Below, piece by piece: positions 30,457 to 37,088 of a stretch of 64,000 bases of DNA. Below the pieces are notes generated by a model. The model did no database searches and was not told the origin of the DNA. It saw nothing but the letters and a program-made list of their open reading frames with translations. A program made the translations under genes and the position numbers. Position 1 is the stretch's first letter; every line of letters starts with the position of its first letter. The stretch is from Streptomyces justiciae (GTDB lineage: Bacteria; Actinomycetota; Actinomycetes; Streptomycetales; Streptomycetaceae), in assembly GCF_015163075.1 (NCBI RefSeq), contig NZ_JADDXU010000009.1, positions 1-64,000 on the forward strand. Reading direction: 5' to 3'.

Positions 30457-32150
30457 TGTCCCCACAGAGACGATCGACCCGGCTCTGGTCCGGAGTCGTC
30501 ACCGTTGCCCTCGTCGCCTTCTCCCTCTCCCTCGCGGGCGCGGGACAGGCCTCCGCAGCCGACGTCAACAACGCCAAGAACGCCGGATTCGAGTCCGGCC
30601 TGACCAACTGGACCTGCACGGCGAGCAGCGGTACGACCGTCTCCTCGCCGGTCCACTCGGGCGCCGCCGCCCTGAAGGCGACCCCGGCGGGCCAGGACAA
30701 CGCCAAGTGCACCCAGTCCGTCGCCGTGAAGCCCAACTCGACGTACACGCTGAGCGCCTGGGTCCAGGGCGGCTACTCCTACCTGGGCGTCACCGGCACC
30801 GGCACGACGGACGTGTCCACCTGGACCCCCGACTCCGCGTCCTGGAAGCAGCTGTCGACCACGTTCACCACCGGCGCCTCGACGACGTCGGTCACGGTCT
30901 ACACCCACGGCTGGTACGGCCAGGCCGCCTACTACGCCGACGACCTCTCGGTCTACGGCCCCGACGGAGGCGGCGGCACCGACCCGACGCCCACGATCCC
31001 GGCCGCACCGGCGGGCCTGGCGGTCTCCGGCACGTCCTCCTCGTCGGTGTCCCTGACCTGGAACACCGTCTCCGGCGCCACCGGTTACAACGTCTACCGC
31101 GGCGGTACGAAGGTGACGGCGGTGACCGGCACCTCGGCCACGGTGACCGGCCTCGCGGCCTCGACGTCGTACTCCTTCCAGGTCACGGCGACCAACTCGG
31201 CGGGTGAGTCCCCGAAGTCGGCGACGGTGACGGGGACAACGACGGCGACCCCGACCGGCCCCGCGCTCCCGAAGCACGCGGTCACCGGCTACTGGCAGAA
31301 CTTCAACAACGGCGCCACCGTCCAGAAGATCTCCGACGTCCAGTCCCAGTACGACATCATCGCCGTGGCCTTCGCGGACGCGACGACGACGCCGGGCGCC
31401 GTCACCTTCAACCTCGACTCGGCCGGTCTCGGCGGCTACACCGTCGACCAGTTCAAGGCGGACATCGCGGCGAAGAAGACGGCCGGGAAGAAGGTGATCA
31501 TCTCGGTCGGCGGCCAGAACGGCACGGTGTCGATCAACGACTCGACGTCGGCGACGAATTTCGCCAACTCCGTCTACTCCCTGATGCAGACGTACGGCTT
31601 CGACGGCGTCGACATCGATCTGGAGAACGGCATCAACGCCACCTACATGACCCAGGCGTTGCGGTCGCTGTCCTCGAAGGCGGGCTCGTCGCTCATCATC
31701 ACGATGGCGCCGCAGACCATCGACATGCAGTCGACGTCGAACGGCTACTTCCAGACCGCGCTCAACATCAAGGACATCCTCACCGTCGTCAACATGCAGT
31801 ACTACAACAGCGGTTCGATGCTGGGCTGCGACGGCAAGGTGTACTCGCAGGGCTCGGTGGACTTCCTCACCGCGCTGGCCTGCATCCAGTTGGAGGGCGG
31901 ACTCGCCCCGTCCCAGGTGGGGTTGGGCCTGCCCGCCTCGACGAGCGGCGCGGGCAGCGGGTACGTGTCACCTACGGTCGTGAACAACGCCCTGGACTGC
32001 CTGACCAAGGGCACGGGGTGCGGTTCCTTCAAGCCGTCGAAGACCTATCCCGACCTACGGGGCGCGATGACCTGGTCGACGAACTGGGACGCCTCGGCCG
32101 GGAACGCCTGGTCGAACGCGGTGGGGCCGCACGTGCACGGGCTGCCGTAG
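30456..32150 (+). CDS. Secreted chitinase, GH18 with carbohydrate-binding module and FnIII
   Basis: The 564-residue enzyme has a signal peptide (about 1-36, ending GQASAAD), a carbohydrate-binding module (about 37-170, NAGFESGLTNWTCTAS to YYADDLSVYG), a Gly/Pro linker, a fibronectin III domain (about 178-262) and a GH18 barrel (270-564). The catalytic DxxDxDxE motif is DGVDIDLE at 383-390 with acid/base Glu390, preceded by the VIISVGGQNG strand. It hydrolyses beta-1,4 links in chitin outside the cell. The ATG lacks a Shine-Dalgarno sequence, so the mRNA is probably leaderless. It is single-gene, convergent with 32164. Confidence 0.92.
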   Translation: MSPQRRSTRLWSGVVTVALVAFSLSLAGAGQASAADVNNAKNAGFESGLTNWTCTASSGTTVSSPVHSGAAALKATPAGQDNAKCTQSVAVKPNSTYTLSAWVQGGYSYLGVTGTGTTDVSTWTPDSASWKQLSTTFTTGASTTSVTVYTHGWYGQAAYYADDLSVYGPDGGGGTDPTPTIPAAPAGLAVSGTSSSSVSLTWNTVSGATGYNVYRGGTKVTAVTGTSATVTGLAASTSYSFQVTATNSAGESPKSATVTGTTTATPTGPALPKHAVTGYWQNFNNGATVQKISDVQSQYDIIAVAFADATTTPGAVTFNLDSAGLGGYTVDQFKADIAAKKTAGKKVIISVGGQNGTVSINDSTSATNFANSVYSLMQTYGFDGVDIDLENGINATYMTQALRSLSSKAGSSLIITMAPQTIDMQSTSNGYFQTALNIKDILTVVNMQYYNSGSMLGCDGKVYSQGSVDFLTALACIQLEGGLAPSQVGLGLPASTSGAGSGYVSPTVVNNALDCLTKGTGCGSFKPSKTYPDLRGAMTWSTNWDASAGNAWSNAVGPHVHGLP

Positions 32151-32163
32151 GCGGCCGGACCGC

Positions 32164-32448
32164 TCAGTCGCCGTCGAGCATCTCGTAGGTCTCGGCGAAG
32201 ATCTCGCCCTCACAGGCGTAGTGCTCGCCGCGCACTCCCTCGATCAGCATCCAGCCGGGCGGGATCTCGTCCGGCGCCGAGCCCCGCTCCATGGTGCGGA
32301 TGCGGAGGACCCGCCCGCCGTCCCGCTCTTCCGAGGCGACGAAGTCGTCGCCGAGGAAGGCACGGACGGCGGGCAGGTCCTCTTCGCGGCCCGTCCAGAG
32401 CAGCGCGCGCACGGTGACCGGGCGCTTGCGGGCGCGGACGACTGGCAT
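32164..32448 (-). CDS. Unknown small protein
   Basis: The 94-residue protein (RARKRPVTVRALLWTGREE, then FLGDDFVASEERDGGRVLRI and the GWMLIEGVRGEHYACEGEIF tail) is a small alpha/beta soluble protein. The pattern VxVxAxxWTG...DW/GWMLIxGxxGExYxCxxxIFxxTY resembles short phage- and Streptomyces-type hypothetical proteins of about 80-100 residues, but I cannot name a function. The ATG at 32448 has AGGAG six bases upstream. It lies 38 bases downstream of helR in the same direction. Confidence 0.75.
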   Translation of the reverse strand: MPVVRARKRPVTVRALLWTGREEDLPAVRAFLGDDFVASEERDGGRVLRIRTMERGSAPDEIPPGWMLIEGVRGEHYACEGEIFAETYEMLDGD

Positions 32449-32486
32449 GAAGGGCTCCTGAGGGGTCGACGTCATGAACCACATTG

Positions 32487-34649
32487 TCAGGAGCTGGACA
32501 GAACAACCAGCCGTTCGGTCGCGCGTGTCATCGCGACATAGCGGTCCACCGCTCCCTCGACCCCCGTGCCGAAGTCCTCCGGGTCGACCAGGATCACGAG
32601 GTCGAACTCGAGCCCCTTCGACAGTTCGGGAGTCAGGGAGCGGACACGGGCCGTGGGCTCGAAGGTCTCGTCGCCGATGACGCAGGCGATGCCTTCGGCG
32701 GGGTGCTCGGCGAGCCAGGTGTCGAGGACCGGGGTCAACTCCTCCACGCGTCCGTGCAGGACCGGGATGCCGCTGCTGCGGATGGAGGTGGGGACGTTGG
32801 CGTCCGGGAGGGCGGCGCGGATGACCGGCTCGGCCTCCGTCATCACCTCTTCCGGGGTGCGGTAGTTGATGCTCAGGGACGCCATGGTGATGCTGGTCAG
32901 GCCGATGCGGCGCAGGCGCTCCTCCCAGGTCTCGGTGAAGCCGTGGCGGGCCTGGGCGCGGTCGCCGACGATGGTGAAGCTGCGGGACGGGCAGCGCAGC
33001 AGCAGCATCTGCCATTCGGCGTCGGTGAGTTCCTGCGCCTCGTCGACGACGATGTGCGCGAACGGGCCGGCCAGCAGGTCCGGTTCGGCGACGGCGAGTT
33101 CGGACTCGTCGACCAGGTTGCGCTGGAAGTCCGCGCGGCGCAGCTGGGTCATCAGGCCCTCGCCGTCCGGGTCGGCCGCGATCAGGTTCTCGACGACCTG
33201 CGCCATCTGCTCACGCTGGGCGGCGAGCGCGGCCTCTTGGCGACGCTTGCGGCCGTCCGCCTTCGGGTCGCCGAGGCGCTGCCGGGCCGCGTCGAGGAGG
33301 GGCAGGTCGGAGACGGTCCAGGCCGCCGGGTTCGCGCGTTGCAGGGTGCGGACCTCGTCGCGGGTCAGCCAGGGCGCGCACAGGCGCAGATAGGCGGGGA
33401 CGGTCCACAGGTCGCCCACCAGGTCCGCCGCCTCCAGCAGGGGCCAGGCGCCGTTGAGGGCGCCCACCAGCTCCTTGTTCTGGCGCAGCACCCGGCGGAA
33501 CAGCTGCGGCGGGACGTCGTCGCGCCCCTCGTACTTCTCCTCCAGGATCGCGACCAGCTTGTCCCAGATCTGGCCGCGGGCCTCGTTGTGCGGGGTGCCC
33601 GGTTCCGGGGCGTCGAAGGCCTCGGCCCAGTCGGCGGCGGTGAGGCGGAGGTCGGTGTGGTCGACCGTGACGGTCAGGCCCTCGGCGGGCGGCTCCTCGT
33701 AGAACCGTACGGCCTTCTCGATCGCCTTCACCAGGTCCGCCGAGGACTTCAGCCGGGCCACCTCCGGGTCGGTCTCCAGAGTCGCCTCCGCTCCTTCCTC
33801 GACCAGGTCGCGCAGGATGCAGGTCTGCACGCCCTCCTCGCCGAGGCTGGGCAGGACGTCGGCGACGTAGGAGAGGTAGGGGCGGTGCGGGCCGACGAAG
33901 AGGACGCCGCCCCTGCGGTGGCCGAGGCGCGGGTCGGAGTAGAGGAGGTGGGCGGTGCGGTGCAGGGCGACGACCGTCTTGCCGGTGCCGGGGCCGCCGT
34001 CGACGACGAGCGCGCCTCGCGAGCCGGCGCGGATGATGGCGTCCTGGTCGGCCTGGATGGTGGCGAGGACGTCCCGCATCCGGTCGGAGCGGTTGCTGCC
34101 GAGGCTGGCGATGAAGGCGGACTGGTCGTCGAGGGCGACCTGCCGCTCCAGGCCGTCGGCGGTGAACACCTCGTCCCAGTAGTCGCTGATCCGGCCGTCG
34201 GTCCAGCGGTAGCGGCGGCGGCTGATCAGGCCCATCGGGTTGGCGTGGGTGGCGGCGAAGAACGGCTCGGCGGCCGGGGAACGCCAGTCGATCAGCAGCC
34301 GGCGGCCCTCGCTGTCGGTGAGGCCGAGGCGGCCGACGTAGAGGGGCTCGGGGTCGTCGGCGGTGACCATGCGGCCGAGGCAGAGGTCGAGGCCGAAGCG
34401 GCGCAGGGTGCGCAGCCGGGCGGTCAGGCGGTGGATCTCCGCGTCCCGGTCCATCGCGGCCCGGCCCGCGCCGCCGGGTGCCTTGAGCTCGGCGTCGAGG
34501 CGGGCGGAGAGGTCGGCGATCGACTCCTCCAGGCTCGCCGCGATGGCCGCGAAGTGCCGCTCGTCACCGGCGATCAGGGTGGGATCGGCCTTGGCGGAGA
34601 GACGGTCGGGGAGGGCGAACGCCGAGGCGGCGGTTCCCTGGGGGTTCAC
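32487..34649 (-). CDS. helR: HelR-type RNA polymerase-recycling helicase-like ATPase (rifamycin resistance)
   Basis: The 720-residue protein belongs to the UvrD/HelD superfamily 1 group. Marks are IDWRSPAAEPFF (120-131), Walker A GGPGTGKT (218-225), HIVVDEAQELTDAEW (Walker B), FTIVGDRAQARHG, INYRTPEEV, and the C-terminal SKGLEFDLVILVDPE and MTRATERLVVL. HelR proteins of Streptomyces and mycobacteria bind RNA polymerase and displace rifamycin; I assign HelR because the gene lies directly after a rifamycin glycosyltransferase and a rifamycin-associated element. The GTG at 34649 follows GGAG by eight bases; an ATG at 34697 is possible but has no such site. The gap to rgt is short. Confidence 0.85.
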   Translation of the reverse strand: MNPQGTAASAFALPDRLSAKADPTLIAGDERHFAAIAASLEESIADLSARLDAELKAPGGAGRAAMDRDAEIHRLTARLRTLRRFGLDLCLGRMVTADDPEPLYVGRLGLTDSEGRRLLIDWRSPAAEPFFAATHANPMGLISRRRYRWTDGRISDYWDEVFTADGLERQVALDDQSAFIASLGSNRSDRMRDVLATIQADQDAIIRAGSRGALVVDGGPGTGKTVVALHRTAHLLYSDPRLGHRRGGVLFVGPHRPYLSYVADVLPSLGEEGVQTCILRDLVEEGAEATLETDPEVARLKSSADLVKAIEKAVRFYEEPPAEGLTVTVDHTDLRLTAADWAEAFDAPEPGTPHNEARGQIWDKLVAILEEKYEGRDDVPPQLFRRVLRQNKELVGALNGAWPLLEAADLVGDLWTVPAYLRLCAPWLTRDEVRTLQRANPAAWTVSDLPLLDAARQRLGDPKADGRKRRQEAALAAQREQMAQVVENLIAADPDGEGLMTQLRRADFQRNLVDESELAVAEPDLLAGPFAHIVVDEAQELTDAEWQMLLLRCPSRSFTIVGDRAQARHGFTETWEERLRRIGLTSITMASLSINYRTPEEVMTEAEPVIRAALPDANVPTSIRSSGIPVLHGRVEELTPVLDTWLAEHPAEGIACVIGDETFEPTARVRSLTPELSKGLEFDLVILVDPEDFGTGVEGAVDRYVAMTRATERLVVLSSS

Positions 34650-34712
34650 TTGATCAGCTCCGATGGAGGCCGGATGCGGGTGATTGACGATGTTCAAGGA
34701 TGAGGGTCGGTT

Positions 34713-35948
34713 CTAGGCCACGATGGTGCCCGCCATGCCGATCAGCAGCTTCGCCGCCGTCGTCGCCCCGTCCGTGCGGACCGTGGCCGCCAGGGACCTG
34801 GCCCGTTCGGCGGTGTCGGGGGCGAGGGCCACGGTGAGCGCGGCCGACAGGGAATCGTAGGTCGGGTTCGGGCCGTCGTGGGCCGCGCCGATGCCGAGCT
34901 CGGCGACGCGGCCGGCCCAGTAGGGCTGGTCGGCCATCTGGGCCACGACCACCTGGGGCGCGCCGGCCCGGGCGGCGGTCGTGGTGGTGCCGGCGCCGCC
35001 GTGGTGCACGACCGCGGCGACCCGGCGGAACAGCTCCTGCTGGTTGACCTCGCCGACGACGCAGCAGTCGTCCTCGCCGTCGATCAGCGCCAGGTCGGCC
35101 CAGCCGCGCCCGAGCAGGACGCGGTGGCCCTGCGCGCGGACCGCCTCCACCGCCGCCCGGGAGACGTCCGCCGCGTCCCGCAGCGGCATGCTGCCGAAGC
35201 CGACGTACACCGGCGGGGCGCCCGCCGCCAGGAACGTCTCCAGGTCCGCGGGGAGCGGCCGGGCGTCGGTGCGGATCCAGGCGCCGGTCTGGACGACGTC
35301 GAGTTCGGCCGGCTCCTGCCAGGGGCTCAGGGCCGGGTCGGACGCCAGGAGCGGGCGGGCGGTGAGGACGTGGTCGCGGATGTCCGGCACCGGGGGCAGG
35401 CCGAGCGCCGCACGCCGGGCGTTGACCGCGCCGCCGAACAGCTCGTTGAGGACCTCGGTGTTCAGGTCCCACAGCTCGCGGTTGTCGGTGACGTCCGCCG
35501 GGAGCGGGTGACCGGGGAAGGCGAGCGGGGGGTGGTGCGGGGAGGGCAGGTAGGACGGGAAGTAGGAGACGAACGCATACGGGACGCCCGCCTTCTCGGC
35601 CGCGGCACGCGCGGCGGCAGCAGCCGGGAGCAGGCCCGTCGCCACCACCAGGTCGCTCCCCTCGGCGACCGGGGCGACCGCGTCATACACCGAGTCGAAC
35701 AGCCAGGCGGCCCGCTCGGCCATGGTCGGGGGCAGCTTGGTCGGCTTCCCGGTCAGGGCGTCCGTCGCCAGCGCCCGCACCGACTGTCCGATCGGCACCA
35801 GCGGGACGCCGACTGCGGCCAGCAGTTCCTCGAAGTCGGGCGGCGCGCAGACCCGCACCTCCGCGCCGAGTTCCCGCAGCGCCACGGCGAGGCCCAGCAT
35901 CGGCTCCACGTCGCCGCGCGACCCGTACGTCAGCAGCACAACACGCAT
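34713..35948 (-). CDS. rgt: Rifamycin glycosyltransferase-like protein (GT1 family)
   Basis: The 411-residue protein is a macrolide/vancomycin-type GT-B glycosyltransferase. The N-terminal domain opens MRVVLLTYGSRGDVEP, and the donor-binding region shows as VVHHGGAGTTTTAARAGAPQ (314-333) followed by MADQPYWAGRVAELG, the sugar-nucleotide site. Rgt enzymes inactivate rifampicin by adding glucose to its C23 hydroxyl. Assignment to Rgt rests on a rifamycin-associated element 60 bases upstream and on the helR neighbour, not on active-site differences. ATG 35948 is chosen; an ATG five codons earlier has only a weak ribosome site. Confidence 0.85.
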   Translation of the reverse strand: MRVVLLTYGSRGDVEPMLGLAVALRELGAEVRVCAPPDFEELLAAVGVPLVPIGQSVRALATDALTGKPTKLPPTMAERAAWLFDSVYDAVAPVAEGSDLVVATGLLPAAAAARAAAEKAGVPYAFVSYFPSYLPSPHHPPLAFPGHPLPADVTDNRELWDLNTEVLNELFGGAVNARRAALGLPPVPDIRDHVLTARPLLASDPALSPWQEPAELDVVQTGAWIRTDARPLPADLETFLAAGAPPVYVGFGSMPLRDAADVSRAAVEAVRAQGHRVLLGRGWADLALIDGEDDCCVVGEVNQQELFRRVAAVVHHGGAGTTTTAARAGAPQVVVAQMADQPYWAGRVAELGIGAAHDGPNPTYDSLSAALTVALAPDTAERARSLAATVRTDGATTAAKLLIGMAGTIVA

Positions 35949-36006
35949 CCGCGTTTTCCCCATTTCCGCAGGTCCCGGCTTCAGGTCGACGATTCTGCGG
36001 TACGAG

Positions 36007-36040
36007 GGGGGCCTTGCCGCAAGGCCCCCGGTGCGCTATA
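36007..36040 (-). promoter_or_regulatory. Rifamycin-associated element (RAE) with adjoining -10 box
   Basis: A perfect 23-bp palindrome (36007-36029) consists of GGGGGCCTTGC and GCAAGGCCCCC arms around one central base. Read on the minus strand its centre is CTTGCGGCAAGGCCCC, as in the published RAE found upstream of rifamycin-inducible arr, rgt, rph, rox and helR genes. A -10-like TATAGC occupies 36040-36035 directly upstream, so the RAE would lie in the first transcribed bases, 59 bases from the rgt start codon. Confidence 0.85.
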
Positions 36041-36098
36041 CATTGAATATGGCAAGAGGTGTCCGCACCTTCTTGCCTTTCGTGTTTCCGGGCCCCGG

Positions 36099-37088
36099 TC
36101 AGCCTTGCAGGGACGTGCGATGGCCGTGCGCCGGGTCCGCGGGGCAGACGAAGAGATTGAGAGTGCCGACCCGGCCCACGCTGACGTGAGTCGGGGCGAG
36201 GACCCGGTCCTCCAGGGGAATCCAACTGGCGGCGCCGCCATGTTCCGAGGGGCGGATCGCCAGCAGGAGTTCCATGGGCGTGCCGCAGGAACAGACCATC
36301 GAGTGCGGGCCGGTGACACCCCAGTAGGCGTAACCGCCCACCTTCCAGCCGGCGGCCACCGCGAAGTCGGCGTCGTAGCTGAGGGGGTCGTCGGCGTCCT
36401 CTTCGCTCTCCCAGAGTTCCTCCTCCCACTCCTCGATCCTCAACTGGAGGTCTTCATCAAGGAGTTCGGGCCACTCGTACTCCACGACCCCTGGCTCCGG
36501 GTGCAGGACGCAGGGCTCGGGGACCAGGCCCTCGTAGCCGACGACCGGTGGGAGCGGCGGGTTCGTGAGTACGGCGTCCATCGCGGCCTCGGAGTCGCGC
36601 CAGCGCAGGTGGACGCCGGGGGTGGGCGGGAGGCCATGGGACTCGAAGGGGCACCACAGCACCTGGAGGAGGTCGTGGCCGGGCGGCGCCGGGAGGTTCG
36701 GCACGTCACGGGCGTACAGCTGGGCCAGGGCGAGGAGGGGGACGGGGTGGGTGTCTCCGATGTCCGGGAGCTTGTGCCGGCGTTGGAGGGTGGTGAGGCG
36801 GTCGCGTTCCTCGTCGGTGAGGGCGCGGTCGTGCGCGGCCGCGTGGATGCGCCGTTCCTCGCGGATGTCCTCGATCCTGCGGCCCTTGTTCCTCCGGTGC
36901 TCCTGCGTGCACGTCGGCCATGCCTCGTCCGCGGGCCACAGCAGCGGGCCGCCCACCGAGCTGTCGTACGGGGTGGGCGTGCCGGGGCGGGGGTGGAGGC
37001 GGGTGGTGGTGCCGCGGTGGGCGGCGAGTTCGGGGAACAGGGCCTCGATGTCGAGCGGGCGGGGCGGTGTCGTACGCGTGCGGGTCAT
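36099..37088 (-). CDS. DUF1963-like protein
   Basis: The 329-residue protein resembles YwqG/DUF1963 proteins: SSVGGPLLWPADEAWPTC near residue 44, PVPLLALAQLYARDVPNLPAPPGHDLLQVLWCPFE in the middle, and a GWKVGGYAYWGVTGPHSMVCSCGTPMELLLAI region resembling a Cys-rich C-terminal half. Function is unknown; such proteins are typical of bacterial contact and stress islands, and immunity roles have been proposed for SUKH/DUF1963-like folds. The ATG overlaps the stop of the preceding small gene in ATGA, so the two act together. Rare W and C residues make it distinct from neighbours. Confidence 0.77.
   Translation of the reverse strand: MTRTRTTPPRPLDIEALFPELAAHRGTTTRLHPRPGTPTPYDSSVGGPLLWPADEAWPTCTQEHRRNKGRRIEDIREERRIHAAAHDRALTDEERDRLTTLQRRHKLPDIGDTHPVPLLALAQLYARDVPNLPAPPGHDLLQVLWCPFESHGLPPTPGVHLRWRDSEAAMDAVLTNPPLPPVVGYEGLVPEPCVLHPEPGVVEYEWPELLDEDLQLRIEEWEEELWESEEDADDPLSYDADFAVAAGWKVGGYAYWGVTGPHSMVCSCGTPMELLLAIRPSEHGGAASWIPLEDRVLAPTHVSVGRVGTLNLFVCPADPAHGHRTSLQG

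What the first reader, a model, noticed from the sequence alone, without database searches (positions are those of the whole stretch)
32487..36040. Rifamycin resistance operon rgt-helR under a perfect rifamycin-associated element
Seen: a 23-bp perfect palindrome (36007-36029) whose centre matches the published RAE, with a -10-like TATAGC directly upstream, 59 bases before a glycosyltransferase gene that is followed, 63 bases on, by a HelR-type helicase. Known: RAE sits upstream of rifamycin-inducible arr, rgt, rph, rox and helR genes; Rgt glycosylates and HelR releases rifamycin from RNA polymerase. The unusual point is that a drug-modifying enzyme and a target-clearing factor share one RAE-controlled transcript.
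Basis: partly seen in the sequence, partly recalled or inferred. Interest (0 to 1): 0.75.

Follow-up and report, generated by a model that had tools for sequence, protein, structure and literature searches.

The report
Rifamycin resistance operon, common in Streptomyces
A Streptomyces chromosome carries two neighbouring genes, one predicted to add a sugar to rifamycin antibiotics and one predicted to knock the drug off RNA polymerase, behind a single drug-response DNA element; the pairing turns out to be common, and remains of the first gene in related species show that it is often lost while the second is kept.

Summary
In detail: on the minus strand a perfect 23-bp palindrome (36007-36029), preceded by TATAGC, sits 58 nt before a 411-aa glycosyltransferase (GT) gene and then, after 63 nt, helR. 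HelR passes its NCBIfam model (1271 bits, cut-off 750). The GT's best family is Rgt, but at 471 bits against a cut-off of 800, which none of 392 Streptomyces genomes reaches; "Rgt-like" is the safe name. The arrangement is not unusual: 41 of the 110 helR loci most similar to this one (itself included) have a GT between element and helR. In 24 of 68 GT-less leaders a GT fragment remains; the N-terminal ones show no amino-acid constraint, so GT was lost repeatedly while element and helR stayed together. The element is wider than its palindrome: a directional module of about 70 bp with -10-like boxes on both sides (TATAGC in 132 of 138 Streptomyces windows, CAnAAT in 110) is shared with rox and rph loci and with other genera. 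A perfect palindrome is a minority form (position 6 pairs in 31 of 138). Induction, co-transcription and drug glycosylation remain inferred. A known kind of system; the additions are the wider module and the loss record.

The parts
36043..36056 (-). upstream conserved box (CTTGCCA...TCAA) of the extended RAE module
   Evidence: consensus of 138 RAE windows; the pattern GCCANNNTCAANNTATAGCGC at up to 1 mismatch is found in the genome only at its two RAEs
36035..36040 (-). TATAGC, -10-like box (predicted promoter P1), 5 nt before the palindrome
   Evidence: TATAGC at this position in 132 of 138 Streptomyces windows; TA in 32 of 33 gene-oriented RAEs of other genera
36007..36029 (-). rifamycin-associated element, 23-bp perfect palindrome; its first G's would lie near the P1 start
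36017..36022 (-). TTGCGG inside the palindrome, possible -35 of a second promoter P2 (19-nt spacer, long)
   Evidence: sequence; analogy to mycobacterial helD P2, whose -35 overlaps the RAE (PMC10719064, section read)
35992..35997 (-). CAGAAT, -10-like box (predicted promoter P2)
   Evidence: CAnAAT in 110 of 138 Streptomyces windows and 24 of 33 others
34713..35948 (-). Rgt-like glycosyltransferase gene, 411 aa
   Evidence: NCBIfam NF000354 471 bits, below its cut-off of 800 (scanned from the longer start); nearest solved structure GtfB 1iir; in a clade of helR-linked GTs
34650..34712 (-). 63-nt intergenic gap; no terminator-like site, promoter-like site or RAE found
32487..34649 (-). helR, 720 aa, GTG start
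   Evidence: NCBIfam NF041254 1271 bits, cut-off 750; P-loop GGPGTGKT; only copy over the cut-off in the genome

Best explanation
A bicistronic rifamycin-resistance operon. When rifamycin is present the RAE promoter module fires (inferred from the family) and one mRNA runs through the GT gene into helR (inferred from anatomy). The Rgt-like enzyme glycosylates free drug (inferred), while HelR clears drug from RNA polymerase that is already poisoned (reported for the family, not shown for this protein). The genome has a second, unlinked RAE-driven GT of another lineage, so both RAEs of this genome drive this enzyme family. In Streptomyces the order RAE-GT-helR is widespread; many RAE-helR loci are what remains after GT was deleted.
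For: HelR model passed, single copy over the cut-off. GT's best family is Rgt. The same module precedes genes whose best NCBIfam family is rox (5) or rph (2) among ten Streptomyces loci scanned (three of these seven are locus-end fragments or otherwise under the cut-off) and helR, rox or an Rgt-like GT in other genera. GT directly before helR in 41 of the 110 most similar helR loci, window included; RAE before the GT seen in 36 directly and in the 5 with short flanks after a refetch or in another locus of the same genome; never an RAE between the genes. GT remnants in 24 of 68 GT-less leaders, none on the minus strand and none in control stretches upstream. Over 20 codons, 19 N-terminal remnants differ equally at the three codon positions (0.280, 0.261, 0.216) while 20 intact GTs do not (0.147, 0.072, 0.292). 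The host's RpoB region reads [26 protein letters not shown], which by my knowledge is the drug-sensitive form.
Against: No expression, transcript or enzyme data. The GT is 329 bits below the Rgt cut-off and also close to glycopeptide glycosyltransferases (422.8 bits to GtfB). The 19-nt spacer of the putative P2 is long. The GT-helR gap is 63 nt here and reaches several hundred nt elsewhere, so a second promoter for helR is possible.
Confidence: 0.82

Rival explanations
1. Two transcription units: the RAE drives the GT only, and helR has its own promoter in the gap or inside the GT gene.
For: The gap is 63 nt, not an overlap; GT-helR distances vary widely among relatives.
Against: No promoter-like site on the minus strand (but that simple scan also misses the conserved RAE boxes). 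RAE-helR without GT is common (68 of 110 loci) and GT-loss scars leave helR behind the RAE, so helR is an RAE gene in its own right.
Confidence: 0.12
2. The glycosyltransferase acts on another natural product (glycopeptide-type GtfA/B/D relative) and is only incidentally next to helR.
For: Rgt cut-off not met; GtfB is a strong match.
Against: Shares the RAE module with rox, rph and helR loci; linked to helR in many species; of the eight neighbouring ORFs tested, five have families (ParA-like, CpaB/RcpC, chitinase GH18, Nramp, ECF-type sigma) and three have none, with nothing biosynthetic among them.
Confidence: 0.08
3. The RAE-flanking boxes are conserved by descent only and have no function.
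For: Most windows come from one genus, so columns are not independent.
Against: The boxes are shared between loci with unrelated downstream genes and between genera, while DNA further out is little conserved.
Confidence: 0.07

Closest known systems
RAE-controlled rifamycin resistance genes (rgt, rph, rox, arr, helR; RAE of Spanogiannopoulos et al. 2014 as cited in PMC10719064; the 2014 paper itself not held)
   Same: palindrome core, position upstream of a resistance gene, gene families
   Different: Two resistance genes of different mechanism behind one RAE. My eight paper searches turned up no text stating this order, but the 2014 paper and Surette et al. 2022 are not held, so it may be in print
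HelR of Streptomyces venezuelae (SVEN_6029) and of Mycobacterium abscessus
   Same: Protein family (NF041254 met) and an upstream RAE, as passages of PMC8655204 and PMC10719064 report for those
   Different: Here a GT gene lies between RAE and helR
Rgt1438, rifamycin glycosyltransferase of Streptomyces (name recalled; family NF000354)
   Same: Best-matching family over nearly its full length
   Different: 471 bits against a cut-off of 800
Dual-promoter rifampicin sensing of Bacillus subtilis helD and pps (PMC12802891, passages seen)
   Same: Two promoters at a rifampicin-response gene
   Different: There the promoters are convergent and helD has no RAE; here two tandem -10-like boxes flank the RAE

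Membership tests
HelR (NCBIfam NF041254) | score over curated cut-off, full length | tested here: met
   1271 bits against 750, residues 11-717, profile 1-705 of 706
HelR | displaces rifamycin from RNA polymerase | not testable with these tools
   needs biochemistry
Rgt, rifamycin-inactivating glycosyltransferase (NF000354) | score over curated cut-off 800 | tested here: not met
   471 bits; 0 of 392 Streptomyces genomes over the cut-off, best 708
Rgt | glycosylates rifamycin | not testable with these tools
   needs an enzyme assay
RAE | palindrome with CTTGCnGCAAG core upstream of rifamycin resistance genes | tested here: met
   the published consensus itself was not seen
RAE | rifamycin-inducible transcription | not testable with these tools
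   needs RNA measurement
Operon | one transcript spanning both genes | tested here: inconclusive
   same strand, 63-nt gap, no terminator-like site, order recurs in 41 of 110 loci; no RNA data

The most novel reading that the evidence does not exclude
The RAE is not just an operator for an unknown regulator but the middle of a directional tandem-promoter module of about 70 bp. P1 (TATAGC) would start at the invariant G-run of the left arm, and P2 (CAGAAT) would use the same arm as its -35, so that the two polymerases compete for the palindrome. Rifamycin would then be sensed by RNA polymerase itself, through changed escape or slippage at the G-run of P1, which frees or redirects P2. This would make the open question of how the RAE senses the drug directly testable. 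It resembles the P1/P2 layout reported for mycobacterial helD (there the RAE is said to lie about 20 bp after the P1 start, so the match is not exact) and fits the tolerance of right-arm changes.
Probability: 0.15. Interest if true: 0.78.

Novelty: new member of a known kind. Interest (0 to 1): 0.42.

Why it matters
It shows that drug modification and target rescue are commonly wired to one rifamycin switch in Streptomyces, and that in many lineages the modifying enzyme was lost while the RAE-helR connection stayed: a record of which resistance strategy is retained. The extended, oriented module gives concrete bases to mutate for the unsolved question of how the RAE senses rifamycins.

Tried and rejected
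RNA hairpin reading of the RAE: the left-arm G's at -7 to -10 are invariant (138 of 138) while the right arm changes without compensation at +10 and +11, and position 6 is unpaired in 107 of 138; the leader fold has z -1.76, with 12 of 200 shuffles as good. Not favoured as main mechanism.

Leader peptide in the GT-less leaders: a peptide whose sequence matters is unlikely, because codon positions differ equally in the remnants. But the GT frame stays open: 0 stops in 570 codons of 19 remnants, where a simulation treating them as independent gives 4.9 on average and 0 in 0.25% of runs (relatedness ignored, so this is weaker than it looks), and in 15 of 19 the open frame picked ends close to the helR start (for L073 that frame starts out of the GT frame). 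Translation through the leader, for example coupled to helR, is therefore not excluded. A first count used ungapped sequences, three of them (L180, L184, L119) without a GT hit; one search replaces it with the same outcome.

Third gene of the operon: the 94-aa ORF at 32164-32448 is found behind helR only in the nearest relatives L037 and L039, not in L041, L042 or L047. Not core.

RAE-linked genes of a new kind: three of ten scanned Streptomyces RAE loci gave no family because my script chose a wrong frame; other frames read by eye as rox-like (L007, L028) and rph-like (L029). Four more (L015, L017, L035, L036) were not scanned.

GT as a proven Rgt: not claimed, because the cut-off is missed.
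Full report
What is there. On the minus strand lie, in order, TATAGC (36040-36035), a 23-bp perfect palindrome (36007-36029), a glycosyltransferase gene (ATG 35948, stop ends 34713, 411 aa), a 63-nt gap, and helR (GTG 34649, stop ends 32487, 720 aa). The GT start at 35948 rather than 35963 follows from alignment with relatives. A simple scan of 32100-36300 found no terminator-like or sigma70-like site on the minus strand; it also misses the conserved RAE boxes, so it says little about promoters.

Who the proteins are. HelR passes its NCBIfam model (1271 bits, cut-off 750), and is the only one of the genome's matches to that model over the cut-off, the next scoring 427. The glycosyltransferase's best family is Rgt, rifamycin-inactivating glycosyltransferase, at 471 bits, far below the cut-off of 800. 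None of 392 Streptomyces genomes reaches that cut-off, the best match being 708 bits, so it seems to be set tightly. The nearest solved structures are the glycopeptide glycosyltransferases GtfB, GtfA and GtfD. I therefore call it Rgt-like. The genome's RpoB has the usual rifampicin-region residues (the comparison with drug-sensitive enzymes is from my knowledge), so the host polymerase should be a drug target.

The element genome-wide. The pattern GGNCTTGCNGCAAGNCC occurs at two places in this genome: here and on contig C9, in front of a second GT of the same family (62% identical; 573 bits to Rgt), again with TATAGC 5 nt before the palindrome. It occurs in 318 of 392 Streptomyces genomes and in 129 of 296 genomes, 50 of 114 genera, drawn from the class with Streptomyces included. 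Of 30 Streptomyces RAE loci fetched, 16 had GT or HelR hits. Of the other 14, ten were scanned: the best family is rox in five (L010, just under its cut-off as a fragment, L011, L013, L022, L031) and rph in two fragments under the cut-off (L016, L020); three gave no family because my script picked a wrong frame (read by eye as rox-like or rph-like). Of ten loci from other genera scanned, seven match HelR (several as fragments under the cut-off), L209 rox, L210 a related flavin monooxygenase better matched by another model, and L211 Rgt at 437 bits.

Is the pairing unusual? I took the 110 Streptomyces helR loci most similar to this one by bit score (30, 80), from 109 genomes and with the window itself as one of them. 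In 41 a GT on the same strand lies directly upstream; in 63 the RAE is under 400 nt from helR with no GT hit in that screen; in 5 it is 412-1132 nt away; one is cut by a contig end. For all 41 an RAE before the GT was seen: 36 directly, 5 after a refetch or in another locus of the same genome. None has an RAE between GT and helR. One of the 41 (L181) has an interrupted GT. The sample is the top of a ranked list, so the proportion applies to close relatives, not to every helR.

How it changed. On a quick tree of 87 GTs (ten with unknown linkage, a few loci present twice, with long-branch warnings) the label 'linked to helR' changes at least 9 times on well-supported branches; on a quick tree of 35 HelRs the label 'GT upstream' changes at least 5 times. 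Direction is shown by scars. Of 68 GT-less leaders between RAE and helR, 24 match GT protein in the forward direction: 22 of the 28 leaders with an RAE-helR distance of 200 nt or more and 2 of the 40 shorter; none on the minus strand, and none in the control stretches upstream of the RAE. Two of the 24 (L067, L115) are weak, E 0.008. Sixteen keep about residues 1-46 (query numbering), four keep other N-terminal lengths (L156, L067, L115, L185), and four keep other parts (L131 and L135 278-367, L134 359-412, L182 357-403). That is at least five different retained pieces, counting L181.

Are the scars relics? In the 19 N-terminal remnants with a GT hit other than L185, aligned and start codon left out, the three codon positions differ equally: 0.280, 0.261, 0.216 over 20 codons and 0.272, 0.290, 0.228 over 30. 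Twenty intact GTs give 0.147, 0.072, 0.292 over 20 codons. Over 10 codons the remnants still show a lower second position (0.373, 0.190, 0.261). So amino acids are not held, which is what decaying relics do. Against a simple relic: the GT frame has 0 stops in 570 codons, against 4.9 in a simulation that ignores relatedness, although another frame also has only 3 in 553. Translation of the leader may be kept for a reason such as coupling to helR.

What is conserved around the element. In 138 distinct Streptomyces windows (43 RAE-GT-helR, 67 RAE-helR, 28 RAE-GT without helR seen) the conserved unit reads about CTCCTTGCCAcTcTCAAcnTATAGCGCACnGGGGGgCTTGCGGCAAGgCCC...gtcgTgCCGCAgAATC and fades outside. 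TATAGC is exact in 132 of 138 and CAnAAT in 110. A matrix from these windows scores the ten scanned rox/rph-type loci, none of them in the training set, above the 99.9th percentile of random windows for both flanks and in one orientation. Some other loci in that table are the same as training loci and are not counted. Of 48 loci from other genera scored, the upstream flank is above that percentile in 46 (not L237, L250) and the downstream flank in 45 (not L209, L211, L228). Among 51 loci (50 of other genera from the class plus L046), 33 could be oriented by a helR, GT or rox-like gene, 16 could not, and 2 (L212, L215) gave no window; of the 33, 32 have TA at the first box, 22 the full TATAGC, and 24 CAnAAT at the second. 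In this genome the upstream box with TATAGCGC occurs at up to 1 mismatch only at the two RAEs.

Shape of the palindrome. Only 31 of 138 pair at position 6, so the window's perfect palindrome is a minority form. Left-arm G at -7 to -10 is invariant, while +10 is C in 110 and +11 in 70 of 138, without compensation. Part of the windows were chosen with a pattern that fixes positions 7 and 8, none with one that fixes 9 to 11. This argues against an RNA hairpin and for a directional DNA element.

How it most likely works. Shown here: anatomy, family membership of HelR, recurrence, scars, module. Inferred: that rifamycin induces the module, that one mRNA carries both genes, that the GT glycosylates rifamycin and that this HelR rescues polymerase. 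[quoted passage not shown] The present data place two conserved -10-like boxes on either side of the RAE. Whether these equal the mapped mycobacterial promoters I could not check.

Novelty. RAE, HelR and Rgt are known. My searches did not turn up the RAE-GT-helR order, the wider module or the GT scars, but two main papers are not held, so I make no claim that these are unpublished. Papers seen: PMC10719064 (passages and one section), PMC12802891, PMC8655204, PMC7283461 and PMC13246000 (passages), PMC13214531 (outline and abstract); others only in listings.

Noticed in passing
L006 3678-4995 (own genome contig C9): Second RAE of the genome, driving a paralogous Rgt-like GT; its highest identity in the tree (75%) is to a helR-linked GT of another species.
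   Followed up: partly
leaders of L131, L135, L134, L182, L185, L117 and others: Remains of the glycosyltransferase gene between RAE and helR in 24 of 68 GT-less leaders; the N-terminal remnants lack amino-acid constraint yet keep an open frame without stops, which I cannot fully explain.
   Followed up: yes
L072 near 755 and 1275: Two RAEs 520 bp apart, one before helR and one before a divergently oriented GT.
   Followed up: no
L046 4936-6248: RAE with an Rgt-like GT in a record labelled Bosea sp. Root483D1 (by my knowledge an alphaproteobacterial genus); some neighbouring ORFs look proteobacterial by eye, suggesting that the RAE-GT unit crossed phyla.
   Followed up: partly
L047 5001-8355: Glycomyces GT-helR pair with no RAE core match in the fetched 11 kb.
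   Followed up: no
window 32164-32448: 94-aa ORF 38 nt after helR, present behind helR in the nearest relatives only; no Pfam family.
   Followed up: partly
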